This document shows, in pieces, positions 16,756 through 64,000 of a stretch of DNA of 64,000 nucleotides. The number at the start of each line of letters is the position of its first letter. Position 1 is the stretch's first letter. The notes under the pieces are model-generated. The model ran no database searches, was not told the DNA's origin, and was given only the letters and a program-made list of their open reading frames with translations. The translations under genes and the position numbers were made by a program. Source of the stretch: Acinetobacter sp. WCHA45 (lineage in GTDB: Bacteria; Pseudomonadota; Gammaproteobacteria; Pseudomonadales; Moraxellaceae); the NCBI RefSeq assembly GCF_002165255.2, contig NZ_CP028561.1, positions 2,812,785 through 2,876,784 of the forward strand. The letters run 5' to 3'.

Positions 16756-17757
16756 ATGAAGTTGCTTCGTCTCAACGCATTATCGCCAGATTTTCAGTTA
16801 CCGCCGACTGCGGTCACGATCGGCAATTTTGATGGTGTCCATCTTGGCCATCAAGCGATGATTGCCCAACTCAAAACGTTGGCTGAAGCGCAAGGCTTAA
16901 AAACACTGGTGATGATTTTTGAGCCGCAACCGCTTGAATTTTTTAAAGCTTATGATGCACCGCCACGCATCAGCTCCCTCAGAGAAAAAGTAGAATATTT
17001 AACTGAACTTGGTGTGGACTACATTGCAGTTGCGAAGTTTGATCAATATTTCAGAAGCTTAAATGCTACTGAATTTGCAGATTTACTCCAATTAAAACTC
17101 AATGCACAAAGCTTAGTGCTGGGTGATGATTTTCATTTTGGCAAAGACCGCCAAGGCAACAGCGAATTTTTACGCGATTATGGCTTTGATGTCACCAATT
17201 TAAATACGGTGGCACTGAATGGAGAACGAGTCAGTTCAACCCGTATCCGTCAGGTTCTACAGCAGGGCGACCTTGCTTTGGCGGCAAAGCTGCTGGGCCG
17301 TCCCTACAGCATTACGGGACGGGTGCAATATGGCGACCAGATTGGACGCACCCTTGATTTTCCAACCATCAATGTTCGTTTAAACCGTCATAAACCTTGT
17401 TTAAACGGCATTTATGCGGTGGATGTCGTCTGTGAAAATGCCTCACTCACAGCAAAAACAAAGCACACTGATCCTGCTTTGAACGGAATTACAGGCTATC
17501 AAGCTGATAGTTTGTTTGGTGCAGGTCATGTCGGGACACGCCCAGCCATCAAACAAGAACATCCAGAGTGGCGATTAGAAGTACATTTTCCTGATGTTTC
17601 TGCTAATCTGTATGGCTTATTGATGCGGGTGACTTTTCTTCACTATCTACATGGTGAACTGAATTACCCTTCGCTTGAAGCACTCAAAGCTGGAATTGAT
17701 GATGACGTGCAAAAATTACGAGACTATCGTGAACGCACACCAGAATTTCCTTTTTAA
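16756..17757 (+). CDS. ribF: Bifunctional riboflavin kinase/FAD synthetase RibF
   Basis: Converts riboflavin to FMN and then FAD. The N-terminal nucleotidyltransferase domain has the GNFDGVHLGHQ motif and the RVSSTRIRQ loop. The C-terminal flavokinase domain includes GRPYSITGRVQYGDQIGRTLDFPT. The ATG at 16756 gives a 333-aa protein starting MKLLRLNALSPDF. It is the first gene of the ribF-ileS-lspA-fkpB operon, conserved in gammaproteobacteria. Confidence 0.96.
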   Translation: MKLLRLNALSPDFQLPPTAVTIGNFDGVHLGHQAMIAQLKTLAEAQGLKTLVMIFEPQPLEFFKAYDAPPRISSLREKVEYLTELGVDYIAVAKFDQYFRSLNATEFADLLQLKLNAQSLVLGDDFHFGKDRQGNSEFLRDYGFDVTNLNTVALNGERVSSTRIRQVLQQGDLALAAKLLGRPYSITGRVQYGDQIGRTLDFPTINVRLNRHKPCLNGIYAVDVVCENASLTAKTKHTDPALNGITGYQADSLFGAGHVGTRPAIKQEHPEWRLEVHFPDVSANLYGLLMRVTFLHYLHGELNYPSLEALKAGIDDDVQKLRDYRERTPEFPF

Positions 17758-37138: not shown

Positions 37139-38047
37139 ATGCGCTTTTTAATTTTTTCAGGGTTAATTATTTTCTTATTAGGGTTAAGTTATCAAACTCA
37201 GAAACATCCTCAACTAAAATTCAATTCATTAGCTGACCGTATCACTCATCCAATAGATACTCGCCTGCGTTATCGAATCGCTGAGGTAGATCCTCGTTTT
37301 AAACTCAGTATTGAACAAGTACAAGAAATTAGCCAACAAGCAACTCAAATTTGGAAAGATGGTACAGGTCAAGATTATTTTGTTTATGACCCCAATGCCC
37401 AACTTGCGATTCACCTCATTTACGATGAACGCCAACAAGAAAGTGAACAACGCCGAGAACATATAACTCAACTCGAAGCGAATCAACAGGTATGGAAAGA
37501 TAAAAAACAGCAATTAGAGCAAATTGAACAAGAAATTATGCGGAGTAAGCAATTTTTAGATTTCAAACAACAACAGCTCAATCAACAAATTCAGCAATAT
37601 AATCAAGAGCAGCTTTCTGCTCAACACAACCAATCTTCATCTGGGAATTCGACATATTTTCAGCAGAAACAACAAGAGCTACAAAGTAATATTGAGTTAG
37701 TGCAACAAGAAGTTAATCAATACAATCAAAGAATTACTCAATTAAATCAAAAAATAGATGAACTTAACTCACTGGATCAACAACTAGATGCTTCAGTCAA
37801 ACAATACAAACAACGCTTTCAACCACATTTATTTCATAAAGGCTTATTTAATGGAAAACAAATTTTAATCTATGAGTTTGAATCAGATAACGATTTACGA
37901 TTAACACTAGCACATGAATTAGGACACGCCCTTGGTTTACAACATGCAAACAGCCCTCAAGCTTTAATGTACCCTATTATGAAAGATCAAGAGATGGGCC
38001 ATTTCCGTCTCACTCAGGCTGACCGTGATTTATTATTAACAAGATAG
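37139..38047 (+). CDS. Matrixin-like metzincin protease with long Gln-rich coiled coil
   Basis: 302 aa. An N-terminal hydrophobic anchor or signal segment (about residues 3-17) is followed by a short domain and a Gln/Glu-rich coiled coil (about 100-220). The C-terminal zinc protease motif HELGHALGLQH is followed by a Met-turn-like LMYP, the metzincin signature HExxHxxGxxH. It is probably exported and membrane-anchored. The direct neighbour is a broken partial copy of the same gene. No substrate is suggested by context. Confidence 0.8.
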   Translation: MRFLIFSGLIIFLLGLSYQTQKHPQLKFNSLADRITHPIDTRLRYRIAEVDPRFKLSIEQVQEISQQATQIWKDGTGQDYFVYDPNAQLAIHLIYDERQQESEQRREHITQLEANQQVWKDKKQQLEQIEQEIMRSKQFLDFKQQQLNQQIQQYNQEQLSAQHNQSSSGNSTYFQQKQQELQSNIELVQQEVNQYNQRITQLNQKIDELNSLDQQLDASVKQYKQRFQPHLFHKGLFNGKQILIYEFESDNDLRLTLAHELGHALGLQHANSPQALMYPIMKDQEMGHFRLTQADRDLLLTR

Positions 38048-38053
38048 CCTTTT

Positions 38054-38423
38054 ATGGCTGAATTCGCCCTACAACAAGAGATTCAAGTTTATAATCAAAA
38101 AACTCAGCAACTTAATCGAGATATTCAAAAACTCAATCAAAATAATAAGCAACTTGTAGCATCAGCTCATCAATTTAATCAAACATTTCAGCCACGTTTG
38201 TTTCACAAAGGGCATTTCAATGGTAAACAGATTTTTATTTATGAATTTTCATCACTGGATGATTTACGCCTCACTCTGGCACATGAGTTTGGACATGCAT
38301 GCACTGGGTTTAAAGCATACCAAAGATCCAAAATCAATGATGTATCCAAGAATCAAGGAACAAGATGCGAAGAACTTTCAACTCGCAGATGTCGATCTGG
38401 AACTACTCGGCTTTTCTCGTTAA
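38054..38423 (+). pseudogene. Frameshifted partial duplicate of the metzincin protease
   Basis: Begins 7 bases after the intact gene and corresponds to its last ~120 residues (coiled-coil end, FQPRLFHKGHFNGKQIFIYE, then HEFGHA). A tandem ATGC-ATGC at 38295-38302 shifts the frame inside the zinc motif. Removing one ATGC restores HEFGHALGLKHTKDPKSMMY and an open frame to 38423. It lacks the signal segment, so even unshifted it would be a fragment. Confidence 0.85.
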
Positions 38424-38555
38424 GTCTCTGTTATAAGGATATGAAAAATCTATAAGCTGATGTTTTTAAAAAGATCGTAACAATGAGTCGATTCTTTTGA
38501 TTTATTCATGTTATTGTGGTGTCAAAACATCATCTTAGTATTAATGGAGATCAGC

Positions 38556-38975: not shown

Positions 38976-40268
38976 TTATTGCATCATTTGTTTTGCTTGC
39001 TCTTGCCTAAATGCACGTAAAATTTGTTGACCAGCACGACCTGTAGGATTCAGGCCTAAGCGCGTTTGCTCTTGGCGAATGGCTTGACGACTTTTGTCTC
39101 CAATCAATCCATCCACCACACCAGTATCATAACCTCGCTTGACCAAAAACTGCTGAATTTCGCGACGCTCTGCTCGAGAAGTCCCTGCATCATCCGTTGG
39201 CCAAGACGTTAAAAATGCTGTACCACCTCGTAAACGATCAGATAAATGAGCGATCGCTAAACCATAACTTTCAGCAGCGTTATAGCTATAAATTGCATCA
39301 AAGTTTTTAAATACCAAAAATGCTGGGCCATTGGCACCTGCGGGTGTAATCAGTCCTGCTGGCGTACTGCCTGACAAATTGCCCTGAATCAAGGCTGTAC
39401 CATCCGCACGAGTCACACCCTGTGCAACCCAGCTATTCAGCGACCTTTTATTACGGCGGCTTTCACCTGCAACTGACATACCTTGTGGAATTGTCACTTC
39501 AAATCCCCATGGCATACCTGTTTGCCACCCTGCCCGTTTTAGGAAATTGGCCGTCGAAGCCAAAGCATCTGTGGTACTTGAAACCAGATCACGGCGGCCA
39601 TCACCATCAAAATCCACCGCCAGACGCTCGTAGGTCGATGGCATAAACTGGGTATGACCAAAAGCCCCTGCCCATGAGCCATAGAGTTGATCTTGTGTTA
39701 AATCACCACGCTGTAAAACACGCATCGTCGCAAAAAATTCACTACGGAAATAACTTTGGCGGCGACCCTCGCAACTGAGCGTTCCCAAAGCCTGCAATAA
39801 TGGATATTTACCTGAAATATCGCCGTAGTTACTTTCCACACCCCACACCGCCACTACAGTTTCTGCGGGTACACCATAAGCCTGTTCAACTCGATTTAAA
39901 ACAGCACGATGTTGAGCAAGTTTTTGTTTGCCCTCTTGGACACGCTCATCATCAACCAAACCTGATAAATAGTCCCAAATTGGAGTCGAAAATTCAGGCT
40001 GGTAATTTAATTTATCAATGACTGAATAATCAGGCGTTAGGTTTTGCGTATAACGATCATAAGTCGCACCAGATACCCCAGATGCGATGGCCTGAGAACG
40101 CAAGTTCGCAATACACGACTGGAAATTTGTATTTGGTGAATAGGTACTGTTGGATGGTGCTGTCGTTGTCGCTGACACCGTTGCACCATTAATAATGAGT
40201 TCTGCATGCGCTTGATTAAATAAAGCAAATAAGGCAGTGCCCATAAATAAAGAAAAATGATGTTTCAT
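38976..40268 (-). CDS. MltB-like lytic murein transglycosylase with peptidoglycan-binding domain
   Basis: Cleaves glycan strands of peptidoglycan in the periplasm. It has 430 aa with a signal peptide (MKHHFSLFMGTALFALFNQAHA). The SLT_2/MltB catalytic domain carries the conserved Glu in AVWGVESNYGDISGKYP and the GAFGHTQFMPSTY motif. A C-terminal PG_binding_1 domain (REIQQFLVKRGYDTGVVDGL) follows. No lipobox Cys is seen, so it is soluble rather than a lipoprotein. Its promoter must lie within the repeat array just upstream, whose first palindrome is 16 bp from the start codon. Confidence 0.9.
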   Translation of the reverse strand: MKHHFSLFMGTALFALFNQAHAELIINGATVSATTTAPSNSTYSPNTNFQSCIANLRSQAIASGVSGATYDRYTQNLTPDYSVIDKLNYQPEFSTPIWDYLSGLVDDERVQEGKQKLAQHRAVLNRVEQAYGVPAETVVAVWGVESNYGDISGKYPLLQALGTLSCEGRRQSYFRSEFFATMRVLQRGDLTQDQLYGSWAGAFGHTQFMPSTYERLAVDFDGDGRRDLVSSTTDALASTANFLKRAGWQTGMPWGFEVTIPQGMSVAGESRRNKRSLNSWVAQGVTRADGTALIQGNLSGSTPAGLITPAGANGPAFLVFKNFDAIYSYNAAESYGLAIAHLSDRLRGGTAFLTSWPTDDAGTSRAERREIQQFLVKRGYDTGVVDGLIGDKSRQAIRQEQTRLGLNPTGRAGQQILRAFRQEQAKQMMQ

Positions 40269-40283
40269 GTCTTAACCAAAGTT

Positions 40284-40844
40284 TTTAAATTTAAATTTCC
40301 TATTCACCTTAACATGCTGTTTGAATATGTACCGTTTGGAAACGTAACTTTGAATTCATTTATTGTCTTTTAAATTTAAAACCTAATTTTTAAATTCATA
40401 ACTCCACCATCGTTTTAAATTTAAAAGTTACCAACACCCTTCATTTAAATTCAAAACAAGCATCAATCACTATCTGTATGTTTGAATTTAAAAATAACTT
40501 CATATCAACCATGTTTTTGAATTCAAAAATAGATGCTTCATTTAAATTTATTCCAATTTACTAAAATAGCTTTAATCTACACATTATTTCTTATATTTCA
40601 TAAAATTAAGATCAAAAATAGATACCCACAATCTAAAAAATTAAATTCAAAACACAGCAATATCTTTAGTTTTAAATTTAAAAACTGCATATTTTTGAAT
40701 TTAAACCACAACACTCAATAACCCACCATAGTTTAAATTCAAATTTTTCACACTATTTTAAATTCAAAAGCTCAGCTTAAAGTTATCCACAGCACTCCAA
40801 AAATGGTATCGCACATTTTTTGAATTTAAAACTTTAAATTCAAA
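40284..40844. repeat. Cluster of 12 perfect and 4 near copies of the palindrome TTTRAATTYAAA
   Basis: Perfect 12-mers start at 40284, 40369, 40414, 40444, 40481, 40516, 40671, 40694, 40732, 40757, 40819 and 40833. Near copies (1-2 changes) start at 40349, 40389, 40541 and 40640. Forms are TTTAAATTTAAA, TTTAAATTCAAA, TTTGAATTTAAA and TTTGAATTCAAA, the last fully palindromic. Gaps between starts vary (14-99 bp), so it is neither a CRISPR array nor a tandem duplication. It looks like a multi-site binding region. A DnaA box sits inside (40783) and another at 40893. No gene is convincing within it. Confidence 0.9.
40783..40791 (+). promoter_or_regulatory. DnaA box
   Basis: TTATCCACA is a perfect high-affinity DnaA box within the palindrome cluster. 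Confidence 0.7.
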
Positions 40845-40860
40845 AAATCATACGCAATAA

Positions 40861-40884
40861 AAAAGCGACCCGAAGATCGCTTTT
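40861..40884 (-). terminator. Terminator of purEK
   Basis: AAAAGCGA / TCGCTTTT with an 8-nt loop lies 20 bp beyond the purK stop, with T-runs in both directions. Confidence 0.85.
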
Positions 40885-40892
40885 TTAGCTAC

Positions 40893-40901
40893 TGTGGATA
40901 A
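40893..40901 (-). promoter_or_regulatory. DnaA box beside the purK stop
   Basis: TGTGGATAA, the reverse complement of TTATCCACA, a few bases past the purK stop codon and opposite in orientation to the box at 40783. Confidence 0.65.
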
Positions 40902-40903
40902 GT

Positions 40904-42025
40904 TTAGATGTTCATATCATCTGTCAGTGCTAATGGAACTGGTAAAATCTGAGCTAATTGGCGGCATAACACGGTCAATTCATCCCTATTGTTCGGCATC
41001 AAAGTAATATGACCAAGCTTACGACCAGCACGCTCAGACTTATTATAAAGATGTAAATGCGCACCTTTCAGTGCTAAAACATCTTCTGATTTCGGGTGTT
41101 GACCAATGATATTGATCATCACTGTTGGACGCACAACATCGGTTGCTCCTAGCGGCAAGCCTGCTACTGCACGGATATGATTTTCAAACTGCGAGCAAAT
41201 CGCACCTTCAATCGACCAATGTCCTGAATTATGAACGCGACATGCCATTTCATTGGCATAAAGCCCTTGTTCAGTCACGAATAATTCAAGTGTAAGTACC
41301 CCCACATAATTAAGATGATTCAACAACCGAGTAATATAGTCTTGTGCAACTGGTTGTAAATCTGTGCTATTTGGTGCAGGAACGATTGAGTGTGATAATA
41401 TGCCATTGTGATGGTGGTTTTCAGCAAGTGCCCAAGTTTTGACATCACCATCTTGACCACGCACCGCAATAATGGATACTTCACGGCTAAATTTCACAAA
41501 ACTTTCTGCAATCAGGCTTTTGGCAGGCCCTAATTCAGCCCAAGCTGTATCAATTTGATCTTCAGAACGTAATACGAACTGACCTTTACCATCGTAGCCA
41601 CCTGTTACGGTTTTTAATACGATAGGTAATCCAAGTTCAGCCACGGCTTGTTTTAAGCTGTCCAAGCTATCCACAGCACGATATGGTGCAACTGGAATAC
41701 CGAGTTCGTCAAACAAACTTTTTTCTGCCAAGCGATTTTGTGCTGTCGCCAAAGCAAGGCGAGGAGGGTGCAGTGTTTTGGTTTGGGTCAAAACATCTAC
41801 ATCAGCAACAGGCGTATTTTCAAATTCAAGACTGAATACATCGGCACTTGCGATGAAATCTTGTAGTGCTTCTGGATTTTTACTTGAAAATACAGGACCT
41901 AAAATAGCTGCTGGGCAGTCTGTTTCGGCTTCGAAAAAGCTACATTGAATATTGAGTGGTAAAGCTGCTTGCGCCATCATGCGCCCAAGCTGTCCACCAC
42001 CAAAAATACCGATGGTTTTATTCAT
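40904..42025 (-). CDS. purK: N5-carboxyaminoimidazole ribonucleotide synthase PurK
   Basis: Purine biosynthesis: ATP plus bicarbonate and AIR give N5-CAIR. It is a 373-aa ATP-grasp enzyme opening IGIFGGGQLGRMMAQAALPL, with VLKTVTGGYDGKGQF and EMACRVHNSGHWSIE. It follows purE by 11 bp on the same strand; the two enzymes act in sequence. Confidence 0.97.
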   Translation of the reverse strand: MNKTIGIFGGGQLGRMMAQAALPLNIQCSFFEAETDCPAAILGPVFSSKNPEALQDFIASADVFSLEFENTPVADVDVLTQTKTLHPPRLALATAQNRLAEKSLFDELGIPVAPYRAVDSLDSLKQAVAELGLPIVLKTVTGGYDGKGQFVLRSEDQIDTAWAELGPAKSLIAESFVKFSREVSIIAVRGQDGDVKTWALAENHHHNGILSHSIVPAPNSTDLQPVAQDYITRLLNHLNYVGVLTLELFVTEQGLYANEMACRVHNSGHWSIEGAICSQFENHIRAVAGLPLGATDVVRPTVMINIIGQHPKSEDVLALKGAHLHLYNKSERAGRKLGHITLMPNNRDELTVLCRQLAQILPVPLALTDDMNI

Positions 42026-47678: not shown

Positions 47679-48911
47679 TCAACGACCATAGCCACGTTTT
47701 TTGAGTTCTAGTTTAGCAATCATGCCCTTATGTACTTCGTCTGGTCCATCAGCTAAACGTAAACTGCGTGCTTGATTAAAAAATGCAGTCAGTGGTGTAT
47801 CACGTGACACACCTTCGCCGCCATGAATCTGAATCGCCATATCCACCACATTTTGCAATACGGTTGGTGCAACCACTTTGATTGCAGAAATTTCGGTGAG
47901 TGCCGCCATATTACCTAAAGTGTCCATCTTGTAAGCCGCATACAGCGTTAATAAACGGGCTTGGTCGATTTGCACACGGGCTTCTGCCACACGTTCTAAA
48001 TTCCCACCCAACTTTAATAATTCTTTACCAAATGCTTTACGGGACATGCCACGATCAATCATCAACTCTAAGGCTTTTTCAGCTGCGCCAATACAACGCA
48101 TACAATGATGGATTCGTCCAGGCCCTAAACGCCCTTGAGCGATTTCAAAACCTTGCCCAGCGCCGCCAATAAAGCTGCTGACGGGTACACGCACATTGTC
48201 AAAACTGACCTGTCCATGCCCATGCGGCGCATCGTAATCACCAAACACAGGCAACATTCTTTCAATCGTCACGCCTTGCGTTTCAATCGGTACTAAGACC
48301 ATCGAATGTTGATGATGACGGTCTTTGCTCTCGTCAGGGGTATAAGCCATGAAGATAATCACTTTGGCATTAGGATCACCCAAGCCCGATGACCACCATT
48401 TACGCCCATTCAGGACGATTTCATCACCATCAATCACTGCCGTGGCTTGCATATTAGTGGCATCACTGGAAGCCACGGCGGGTTCAGTCATACAGAACAC
48501 TGAACGGATTTCCCCTGCAAGCAAAGGTTGCAACCATTGCTGTTTTTGTGCCTCGCTACCATAGCGCCATAACACTTCCATATTGCCGCTATCAGGTGCA
48601 TTACAGTTAAATACGGTGGGTGCAAGTAAGCTACGTCCAGTCAGTTCGGCAATATGCGCATATTCCTGAACCGATAAACCAGCACCCAATTCCGCATCGG
48701 GCAAAAACATATTCCATAAGCCAGCCGCTTTAGCCTTATCTTTCAATTGTTGTAATTGTTCAGGCCACTGCCACTTGGTCCAGTCACCATCCACATTGAG
48801 ATGATGGACGTCATCCCAAAATACCTTTTCGATCGGTTCAATTTCTTGTTGGATAAAGGCTTTGGTTCGTGCAATAAAATCCTGTGCGCGCTCAGATAAT
48901 GCAAACATCAT
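47679..48911 (-). CDS. Acyl-CoA dehydrogenase (ACAD11-like)
   Basis: FAD-dependent dehydrogenase of about 410 aa with FCMTEPAVASSDATNMQ and GRKWWSSGLGDPNAKV in the N-terminal and middle domains. The FAD/substrate C-terminal domain ends IQIHGGEGVSRDTPLTAFF. Starts at 48914, 48911 and 48908 are adjacent; GAGGG at 48918-48922 best fits 48911. It is the first gene of the operon and faces a divergent LysR gene. Confidence 0.9.
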   Translation of the reverse strand: MMFALSERAQDFIARTKAFIQQEIEPIEKVFWDDVHHLNVDGDWTKWQWPEQLQQLKDKAKAAGLWNMFLPDAELGAGLSVQEYAHIAELTGRSLLAPTVFNCNAPDSGNMEVLWRYGSEAQKQQWLQPLLAGEIRSVFCMTEPAVASSDATNMQATAVIDGDEIVLNGRKWWSSGLGDPNAKVIIFMAYTPDESKDRHHQHSMVLVPIETQGVTIERMLPVFGDYDAPHGHGQVSFDNVRVPVSSFIGGAGQGFEIAQGRLGPGRIHHCMRCIGAAEKALELMIDRGMSRKAFGKELLKLGGNLERVAEARVQIDQARLLTLYAAYKMDTLGNMAALTEISAIKVVAPTVLQNVVDMAIQIHGGEGVSRDTPLTAFFNQARSLRLADGPDEVHKGMIAKLELKKRGYGR

Positions 48912-63339: not shown

Positions 63340-64000
63340 ACTCCCAAAATGATCTTTCTATAAAGGTCCGCGATTTTATTGTGCAATGTTTACGCTGTCA
63401 ATGGAAAATCAAAAACTTTACATTTTGTTTGTTCTGTTTTGGAGCAATAAAACACCTAGCAAATATCTCACATGATGGAAAACAAAAAATATACACAAGC
63501 TATCCCTTTATATTATATCAATATTCAACTATATTCACAGTTTACACGCAGACTTATCAACAACCAAGATTCTAGTTTAAATTTAATTCTTGGATTTTGA
63601 ATTTAAATTTCGATATGCTTAGTTATCCACAACCCAGCCCGATCTTATAAGTAAATTCAAATTTTAAAATTTAAATTTATTCTTATTAGCATGCATTTTT
63701 TATGTGGAAATTGATGTTTTTATAAGTTTAAACAATGATTTACTTTGTGGATAACTATGTTTTTATTAATTTTATAAATTGTGGATAACTTTAGCGCTAA
63801 AACTATCCACAGCTTGTGTAAGAAGTTATGCACAAGTGGTTTTAAATTTAAATTTATAATCAAATGCTTTCTTTTTCGGCAAAAGTCTCATAAATTTGCC
63901 TGACAGATGTGGATAACTTGGTTAGAATGGCGACCCCTTCGAAAGATGGGATTGGTGGTTTCTTTATTTTTGAATTTAAAATGGATATTAGGGGATGCAC
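63340..64000. other. oriC: Chromosomal origin region (oriC) upstream of dnaA
   Basis: AT-rich, non-coding, between rpmH and the window end. DnaA boxes are at 63623-63631 (TTATCCACA, +), 63746-63754, 63780-63788 and 63908-63916 (all TGTGGATAA, -). CTATCCACA at 63803 and TTATGCACA at 63826 (both +) are weaker or relaxed matches. The rpmH-oriC-dnaA order is standard. AGGGG at 63990-63994 would suit a dnaA start just beyond base 64000, so dnaA itself is not in the window. Confidence 0.88.
63596..63980. repeat. TTTRAATTYAAA palindromes in the origin region
   Basis: Perfect copies start at 63596, 63841 and 63969. A near copy is at 63576, with weaker ones at about 63650 and 63670. This is the same 12-mer as in the 40.3-40.8 kb cluster, interleaved with DnaA boxes. 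Confidence 0.8.

What the first reader, a model, noticed from the sequence alone, without database searches (positions are those of the whole stretch)
40269..40903. Dense cluster of a 12-bp palindrome (TTTRAATTYAAA) with DnaA boxes, 23 kb from oriC
Twelve perfect and four near copies of TTTRAATTYAAA lie in 561 bp of non-coding DNA. From base composition alone I would expect well under one perfect copy in the whole window. Outside this cluster and the origin I found a single perfect copy (17753, between ribF and ileS). The unequal spacing and the variants at the two degenerate positions mean sites kept by selection rather than copied repeats. A perfect DnaA box (40783) lies within, and an inverted one (40893) at the purK stop. 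One reading is a DnaA/nucleoid-protein loading or titration locus, analogous in role to datA or DARS of E. coli; another is a multi-site operator for mltB. I know of no described element of this form in Acinetobacter, though I cannot search.
Basis: partly seen in the sequence, partly recalled or inferred. Interest (0 to 1): 0.85.

Follow-up and report, generated by a model that had tools for sequence, protein, structure and literature searches.

The report
Methylated second locus paired with replication origin
Acinetobacter chromosomes usually carry, not far from the replication origin, a conserved patch of non-coding DNA packed with the target site of one dedicated DNA-marking enzyme and with binding sites for the replication starter protein, which looks like an independently evolved way to control when the chromosome is copied.

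Summary
Window 40284-40844 has 12 perfect TTTRAATTYAAA; the 3.09 Mb genome has 26, three at oriC. Of the 80 best mltB loci fetched, 75 carry the array. Paired sites occur somewhere in 39 of 41 Acinetobacter and 4 of 4 sister-genus genomes, 0 of 104 other Moraxellaceae. DnaA boxes (TTATCCACA) sit in 74 of 75 arrays, 3.19/kb inside against 0.037/kb in flanks. All 50 oriC regions read hold at least one site. Sites and boxes stay fixed while spacers diverge. The motif is published: it is the target of the orphan adenine methyltransferase AamA (PMC10483419). That paper's densest methylated regions (29 and 9 sites) equal the strand-sites in the array (29) and oriC (9) of another A. baumannii strain. 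aamA is in 98 of 99 Acinetobacter genomes; SeqA in 0 of 13 tested. Best reading: an AamA-marked DnaA-box locus that works with oriC in initiation control, analogous to Dam/SeqA plus datA. The replication role and any reader of the mark are inferred. Novelty: new variant of a known kind.

The parts
40269..40903 (.). the array: intergenic region between mltB and purK
   Evidence: array present in 75 of 80 fetched mltB loci
40284..40295 (.). AamA motif TTTAAATTTAAA, starting 27 bp upstream of the mltB start; perfect in 13 of 13 close genomes
40369..40380 (.). AamA motif, perfect in 12 of 13
40389..40400 (.). one-mismatch motif (TATGAATTTAAA on the other strand; motif VI of PMC10483419, methylated in 2 of 3, then 1 of 3 copies there)
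40414..40425 (.). AamA motif, perfect in 13 of 13
40444..40455 (.). AamA motif, perfect in 13 of 13
40481..40492 (.). AamA motif, perfect in 13 of 13, letters vary only at R/Y
40516..40527 (.). AamA motif TTTGAATTCAAA, perfect in only 3 of 13 (turnover site)
40640..40651 (.). one-mismatch motif
40671..40682 (.). AamA motif, perfect in 12 of 13
40694..40705 (.). AamA motif, perfect in 13 of 13
40732..40743 (.). AamA motif, perfect in 12 of 13
40757..40768 (.). AamA motif, perfect in 13 of 13
40783..40791 (+). DnaA box TTATCCACA; box columns identical in 12 of 12 relatives
40819..40830 (.). AamA motif, perfect in 13 of 13
40833..40844 (.). AamA motif, perfect in 4 of 13 (turnover site)
40893..40901 (-). 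DnaA box TTATCCACA just beyond the purK stop; box columns identical in 12 of 12 relatives
63340..64000 (.). oriC (rpmH-dnaA intergenic; dnaA is the first gene at the other end of this contig; rpmH named by my reading)
63596..63607 (.). AamA motif at oriC, slot A (occupied in 36 of 41 oriC)
63841..63852 (.). AamA motif at oriC, slot C (28 of 41)
63969..63980 (.). AamA motif immediately upstream of dnaA, slot D (25 of 41)
63623..63916 (.). span of the four exact DnaA boxes of oriC (63623, 63746, 63780, 63908)
38976..40268 (-). mltB-type lytic transglycosylase (TIGR02283, PF13406), neighbour
40904..42025 (-). purK, neighbour (name from the finding and my reading of the protein; no family search run)

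Best explanation
The array is a chromosomal control locus that belongs with oriC. Shown here or in print: the palindromes have the sequence of the 12-bp targets of AamA, an orphan m6A methyltransferase; they occur in one dense array together with DnaA boxes and, in fewer copies, at recurrent places in oriC and just upstream of dnaA; they are under selection. Strongly suggested by matching site counts: in A. baumannii both places are methylated by AamA on both strands. Inferred: replication of oriC and, about 20 kb later, of the array leaves both hemimethylated; this state changes binding of DnaA, or of an unidentified reader protein, so that the array takes up DnaA and the oriC/dnaA-promoter sites are held inactive until AamA restores full methylation. 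In effect a re-initiation block and DnaA sink, working like Dam-GATC/SeqA plus datA, with unrelated sequence and, as far as tested, without SeqA.
For: Motif identity with the AamA target. 29 (array) and 9 (oriC) strand-sites in A. baumannii X4-300 match the paper's region 1 (29, 28 in the second run) and region 2 (9, 9). aamA in 98 of 99 Acinetobacter genomes and 4 of 4 sister-genus genomes at 84-85% identity; in the same family sample genomes with an AamA-like protein below 56% or none have no paired sites (0 of 104). DnaA boxes inside 74 of 75 arrays, 86-fold denser than in the flanks. All 50 oriC read have a perfect site; 105 of 117 oriC sites in 41 genomes fall in four slots drawn after seeing them. 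Selection: fixed motif positions 91% same, boxes 100%, spacers 61%, purK coding end 83%; R/Y positions change mostly by transitions. In 56 of 59 genomes mltB faces dnaA at 15.8-31.9 kb, median 21.2 kb. Paper: aamA loss slows growth; rnpA, dnaA and pitA rise 1.5-2.4-fold. Abstract of PMC9769888: overexpression of the A1S_0222 methyltransferase lowers growth rate. In G097, whose mltB lacks the array, a small motif+box array sits at purE; G073 has a further motif+box cluster.
Against: No experiment shows a replication defect of the array or of aamA mutants; in the paper complementation restored neither growth nor dnaA to wild type, and transcription of about 800 genes changed. No reader protein is known. 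IHF sites, part of datA, are not enriched (14 seen, 13.9 expected). Five of 14 examined genomes without a triple array have no motif at mltB (G019, G029, G030, G031, G076) yet have oriC sites, so the array is dispensable. In G093 the array lies about 125 kb from oriC. The site at -27 could regulate mltB. GATC is mildly more frequent in the arrays than expected (101 seen, 67.6 expected), unexplained.
Confidence: 0.6

Rival explanations
1. An epigenetic operator: AamA methylation of the array tunes mltB (and oriC sites tune dnaA/rnpA). This is close to how the authors of PMC10483419 read their methylated regions.
For: The array ends 15 bp before the mltB start codon and that last site is perfect in 13 of 13 close genomes. 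The paper reports 'mltA' 1.6-fold changed in the aamA mutant, recovered by complementation; that this gene is our mltB is my inference.
Against: A dozen sites over 560 bp plus DnaA boxes is more than one promoter seems to need. An IS30-type insertion parts ten sites from mltB in L053, an IS5-type one splits the array in L059, a desaturase-like gene splits it in L120, sites kept on both sides (kinds by my reading). In the sister-genus genome G141 an RlaP-family gene lies between array and mltB, in G093 two ORFs; in G097 the array is at purE and not at mltB. The genes in between are on the mltB strand in G141 and G093, so a longer operon is not excluded there.
Confidence: 0.13
2. A nucleoid-domain or segregation site: an unknown DNA-binding protein coats the TTTRAATTYAAA sites at oriC and array to fold or anchor the origin region; methylation by AamA only modulates it.
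For: Array and oriC lie among parS-like sites (11770, 30690, 57029). Site spacings cluster near 14, 20, 25, 30, 37 and 45 bp, period about 5.7 bp (R 0.298, n 324 clustered spacers up to 60 bp; 0 of 1000 resamples reach it), as a protein binding on both faces of the helix would favour.
Against: The spacings are inherited among related species, so the spacing test is not independent; changes of spacing show only a slight excess at 10-11 bp. No such protein is known, and the DnaA boxes remain unexplained.
Confidence: 0.2
3. AT-rich drift or copied repeats without function.
For: The motif is AT-rich and two of twelve sites turn over quickly.
Against: The reversed-pattern control has no triple array in any of 99 genomes, against 84 with at least one; fixed positions are conserved while spacers are not; 751 sites inside 75 arrays against 1 in 493 kb of flanks.
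Confidence: 0.01

Closest known systems
AamA target regions 1 and 2 of A. baumannii ATCC 17978 (Yang et al. 2023, PMC10483419)
   Same: Same 12-bp motif; region 2 is at dnaA/rnpA; site counts 29 and 9 equal the array and oriC counts in A. baumannii X4-300. Very likely the same two loci.
   Different: The paper treats them as regulatory regions of genes, with one sentence linking the motif upstream of dnaA to replication initiation. Its main text has 0 hits for oriC, DnaA box, titrat*, replication origin; the sections read do not compare other species for the array.
Dam / GATC / SeqA origin sequestration of E. coli
   Same: Orphan adenine methyltransferase; symmetric sites in oriC and next to dnaA, interleaved with DnaA boxes.
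   Different: 12-bp instead of 4-bp site; 11-54 perfect sites per genome in 99 genomes instead of many thousands (recalled); no SeqA found; no NCBIfam Dam model hit; the largest group of sites is a second locus.
datA of E. coli
   Same: Non-coding cluster of DnaA boxes outside oriC; proposed sink for DnaA.
   Different: No enrichment of IHF sites; carries methylation sites; much nearer to oriC (about 20 kb; datA at about 470 kb is recalled).
CcrM / GANTC of Alphaproteobacteria
   Same: Core orphan methyltransferase with a cell-cycle role suggested by site placement.
   Different: Different methyltransferase family as recalled (AamA is D12 class); GANTC is not enriched in the arrays (46 seen, 77.7 expected).

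Membership tests
AamA methylation target locus | carries TTTRAATTYAAA, the published in vivo motif | tested here: met
   against PMC10483419
AamA methylation target locus | aamA present in the same genome | tested here: met
   one PF02086 protein, 430 aa, behind nrdR and ribD (neighbours named by my reading); identity with A1S_0222 inferred from uniqueness and because the paper names nrdR among the neighbours of its MTase genes
AamA methylation target locus | sites methylated in this strain | not testable with these tools
   no reads; in print for A. baumannii only
datA-type DnaA sink | cluster of DnaA boxes in non-coding DNA away from oriC | tested here: met
   two exact boxes in the window array; 74 of 75 arrays with at least one
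datA-type DnaA sink | IHF site within the cluster | tested here: not met
   14 seen, 13.9 expected in 73 arrays; none in the window array
datA-type DnaA sink | promotes DnaA-ATP hydrolysis; deletion causes over-initiation | not testable with these tools
   needs experiment
Dam/SeqA sequestration | methylation sites clustered at oriC and at the dnaA promoter | tested here: met
   at least one site in 50 of 50 oriC; slot D next to dnaA in 25 of 41
Dam/SeqA sequestration | SeqA present | tested here: not met
   PF03925: 0 of 19 genomes, 13 of them Acinetobacter; E. coli control positive
Dam/SeqA sequestration | GATC-specific Dam | tested here: not met
   the only D12 methyltransferase in this genome is AamA; no NCBIfam family hit; its specificity was not tested here
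mltB operator | array in the mltB promoter region wherever it occurs | tested here: not met
   G097, G141 and G093

The most novel reading that the evidence does not exclude
Acinetobacter has evolved, independently of Dam/SeqA, a dedicated origin-licensing methylation system: a long-specificity orphan methyltransferase whose selected targets are essentially only oriC, the dnaA promoter and one DnaA-box array, where the methylation state of the array acts as a replication-passage timer that releases or captures DnaA, read by a still unknown protein specific for hemimethylated TTTRAATTYAAA.
Probability: 0.35. Interest if true: 0.92.

Novelty: new variant of a known kind. Interest (0 to 1): 0.8.

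Why it matters
How gammaproteobacteria without Dam and SeqA prevent re-initiation is largely open (recalled). This gives Acinetobacter, a major clinical genus, a concrete candidate: one enzyme, one 12-bp site, two main loci. It re-reads published methylome data, in which 38 of 59 methylated sites of A. baumannii (37 of 41 in the second run) fall in regions 1 and 2, from promoter tuning to a likely cell-cycle control, and it would offer a reason for the slow growth and raised dnaA of the aamA mutant. It is directly testable by deleting one non-coding locus in a laboratory strain.

Tried and rejected
Chance or AT-richness: rejected. Copied repeats: rejected, since spacers diverge and R/Y letters vary while fixed letters stay. 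IHF-containing datA homologue: IHF not enriched. Phage origin: a triple array beginning with TTTGAATTTAAA was found in no viral contig (a narrower pattern than used in genomes). Plasmid origin: the window array has one weak match (24% covered, 71% identity) in 72,556 plasmid records (BLAST's low-complexity filter weakens this negative), in a 3.97 Mb A. baumannii record filed as a plasmid that carries purEK, mltB and the oriC-side genes. Helical phasing: a period of about 5.7 bp, but the rows are related and the check on spacing changes is weak, so I do not rely on it. Scattered sites: of the ten outside the window nine lie inside open reading frames (on the ORFs) and no exact DnaA box lies in the stretches read; they look like background, although two pairs recur with the same spacing in G005.

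Rows and choices to know. L182 was fetched at the wrong place (the aamA locus of G018, not mltB), so G018's mltB array is not assessed; it is in the 'noTriple' total, which I do not use. That group also held five genomes that do have triples (G041, G043, G069, G091, G097). Of the 50 oriC regions 46 were chosen by dnaA position or were the window; four (G141, G107, G121, G097) were chosen after their motif positions were known. One search used 13 of 76 arrays (L053 left out as interrupted); one search's conservation test 8 of 41 oriC. L053, L059 and L120 were left out of the spacing-change count and (73 arrays incl. the window); they are, where their insertions lengthen the 'inside' stretch. 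Intervals over 80 bp were dropped. One search covers the 59 genomes with dnaA and mltB on one contig and dnaA away from its start; of 21 more with dnaA at the contig start only five had a known contig length (22.3, 23.7, 28.3, 101.3, 126.3 kb).

Literature was searched only in the held open-access library; no paper describing this locus as a replication element was seen in those listings. Papers: PMC10483419 abstract, sections 16-18 and 20 and passages; PMC10287943, PMC13201069, PMC13227989 passages; PMC9769888 outline, abstract and passages; all others search listings only.

Full report
Observation. The intergenic stretch 40269-40903 between mltB (start 40268, minus) and purK (stop 40904) holds 12 perfect TTTRAATTYAAA in 561 bp, two one-mismatch copies, and two TTATCCACA boxes at 40783 and 40893. 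With one mismatch allowed the window has 26 matches against 4.37 in shuffles (0 of 100 reach it). The whole genome has 26 perfect sites: 12 here, 3 at oriC, 1 at 17753 and 10 scattered, against 15 for the reversed pattern.

What the motif is. An exact-string search of the paper library found PMC10483419: SMRT sequencing of A. baumannii ATCC 17978 and an aamA deletion gave TTTRAATTYAAA as the in vivo m6A target of the orphan methyltransferase AamA. 59 of 66 subtype sites were methylated in a first run and 41 in a second, none in the mutant; methylated sites were dense in region 1 (29, then 28) and region 2 (9, then 9; rnpA and dnaA). PMC10287943 reports two similar motifs, partly methylated in all its tested A. 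baumannii strains, all with aamA homologues (passage). PMC13227989 lists the motif in its strains (figure legend).

Identity of region 1. The array of A. baumannii X4-300, between purK and mltB, has 29 strand-sites of the paper's motif types plus the TTTGAATTCAAA form, including one TATGAATTCAAA, a variant that the paper counts once in its genome and places in region 1. The oriC of the same record has 9, including one TATGAATTTAAA, which the paper places in regions 2 and 6; five related oriC (L211, L212, L222, L223, L228) also have 9. TTTGAATTCAAA, two of my 29, is not among the paper's six subtypes, and the strains differ, so the identification is an inference, but a strong one. In that case 38 of the 59 methylated sites of ATCC 17978 lie in array and oriC.

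The enzyme. The window's genome has one D12-class methyltransferase, 430 aa, directly behind ribD and nrdR (names by my reading); the paper names nrdR among the neighbours of its methyltransferase genes. It hits PF02086 and no NCBIfam family. A match is present in 98 of 99 Acinetobacter genomes, the miss being a 65% complete one; best identities run from 78% to 100%, against a lowest value of 71% for MltB (leaving out G018, where only a paralogue was found). It behaves as a core gene. This differs from the paper's remark that some Acinetobacter species lack it.

Distribution. Three closely spaced sites occur somewhere in 84 of 99 Acinetobacter genomes, the reversed control in none. Pairs occur in 39 of 41 Acinetobacter, 4 of 4 genomes of a sister genus and 0 of 104 other Moraxellaceae; the reversed control rings once, in G125. 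These patterns also count clusters at oriC, as in G098. In the same sample AamA relatives at 84% identity or more are found in exactly these two genera; elsewhere the best are 48-55%. Of 80 fetched mltB loci 75 have the array with 4-15 perfect sites; L121-L125 have none. Of the 15 genomes without a triple array 14 were examined at mltB: seven have 4-7 sites, two have 1-2, five have none (G018 not assessable; only 945 bp were available for G031).

DnaA boxes. Of 75 arrays 74 contain TTATCCACA: 148 in 46.4 kb inside, 18 in 492.7 kb of flanks; palindromes 751 inside, 1 outside. In G019, which has no palindrome at mltB, three TTATCCAC cores and several TGTGGATATC repeats stand upstream of mltB. 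In G097, whose mltB lacks the array, three palindromes and two boxes stand before purE. In G073, which also has an array at mltB, a further cluster of three palindromes and three boxes lies before an ABC-F-like gene. Boxes and palindromes thus tend to go together even away from mltB.

Selection. In 13 close genomes the fixed motif positions are 91% unchanged, spacers 61%, the end of the purK frame 83%, boxes 100%; at the degenerate positions changes are mostly transitions, 15.6% against 2.8% transversions. Two of twelve sites, 40516 and 40833, are recent gains or losses (perfect in 3 and 4 of 13). In oriC (8 genomes) fixed positions are 95.7% unchanged, boxes 99.2%, the rest 77.3%; one of the three window sites (63841) does not align as perfect in all. 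In 41 oriC, 105 of 117 sites fall in four slots about 120 bp apart, the last just before dnaA (slots drawn after seeing the positions).

Place. In 56 of 59 genomes with both genes on one contig mltB faces dnaA at 15.8-31.9 kb, median 21.2 kb; in three (G019, G025, G098) the orientation differs and the array is lost or reduced to 1-2 sites. Among five more with dnaA at the contig start the distances are 22.3, 23.7 and 28.3 kb, and 101 kb in G076 (no array) and 126 kb in G093, which keeps 14 sites about 125 kb from oriC.

Mechanism. Shown here or in print: target sequence, methylation in A. baumannii, DnaA boxes, pairing with oriC, selection. Inferred: hemimethylation after fork passage as a signal, DnaA uptake by the array, a reader protein. 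The published aamA phenotype (slow growth; rnpA, dnaA and pitA up 1.5-2.4-fold; filaments in one medium) fits but is indirect and was not restored by complementation for growth and dnaA. SeqA was not found in 13 Acinetobacter genomes, with E. coli positive, so any reader is unrelated or DnaA itself.

Rivals. An mltB operator is weakened by insertions within or beside the array (L053, L059, L120), by intervening genes in G141 and G093, and by G097, but the site at -27 may well affect mltB. A nucleoid or segregation site cannot be excluded; parS-like sites lie on both sides of the array.

Verdict. A real, conserved and selected element; its chemistry is already in print; its nature as a DnaA-box locus paired with oriC was not found in the library searched. 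New variant of a known kind.

Noticed in passing
L296:180-345 (G073 C1): A further cluster of three AamA motifs and three DnaA boxes in about 165 bp, upstream of an ABC-F-like gene about 82% identical to genes on Acinetobacter plasmids.
   Followed up: partly
L289:2040-2220 (G019): Several DnaA-box-like repeats (TTATCCAC, TGTGGATATC) upstream of mltB with no palindrome, in a genome that keeps aamA and two oriC sites.
   Followed up: partly
L158, L159 (G000 C6:152 kb and 174.7 kb): Pairs of AamA motifs 84 and 108 bp apart inside coding frames; pairs with the same spacings occur in G005. The second lies in a methyltransferase-like gene that may be the paper's smtA region 12.
   Followed up: partly
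window 11770, 30690, 57029: Three perfect parS-like sites around array and oriC, one more with two mismatches at 47796.
   Followed up: no
L053, L059, L120: Insertions (IS30-type, IS5-type, desaturase-like gene, by my reading) inside or beside the array, with motifs kept on both sides.
   Followed up: yes
oriC of G097, G030, G076 (L294, L299, L297): oriC has 5-7 motifs in three genomes whose mltB lacks the array, against 1-6 in the 40 oriC; G031 and G019 do not follow this.
   Followed up: no
window 37139-38455: Two neighbouring ORFs with similar C-terminal parts (protease-like HExxH stretch, by my reading); the second looks shortened, with a second frame open alongside.
   Followed up: no
NZ_CP064203.1: A 3.97 Mb A. 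baumannii record filed as a plasmid carries purEK, mltB, the array and the oriC-side genes; it appears to be the chromosome.
   Followed up: yes
arrays of L046-L120 and window: GATC is somewhat more frequent in the arrays than expected (101 against 67.6).
   Followed up: no
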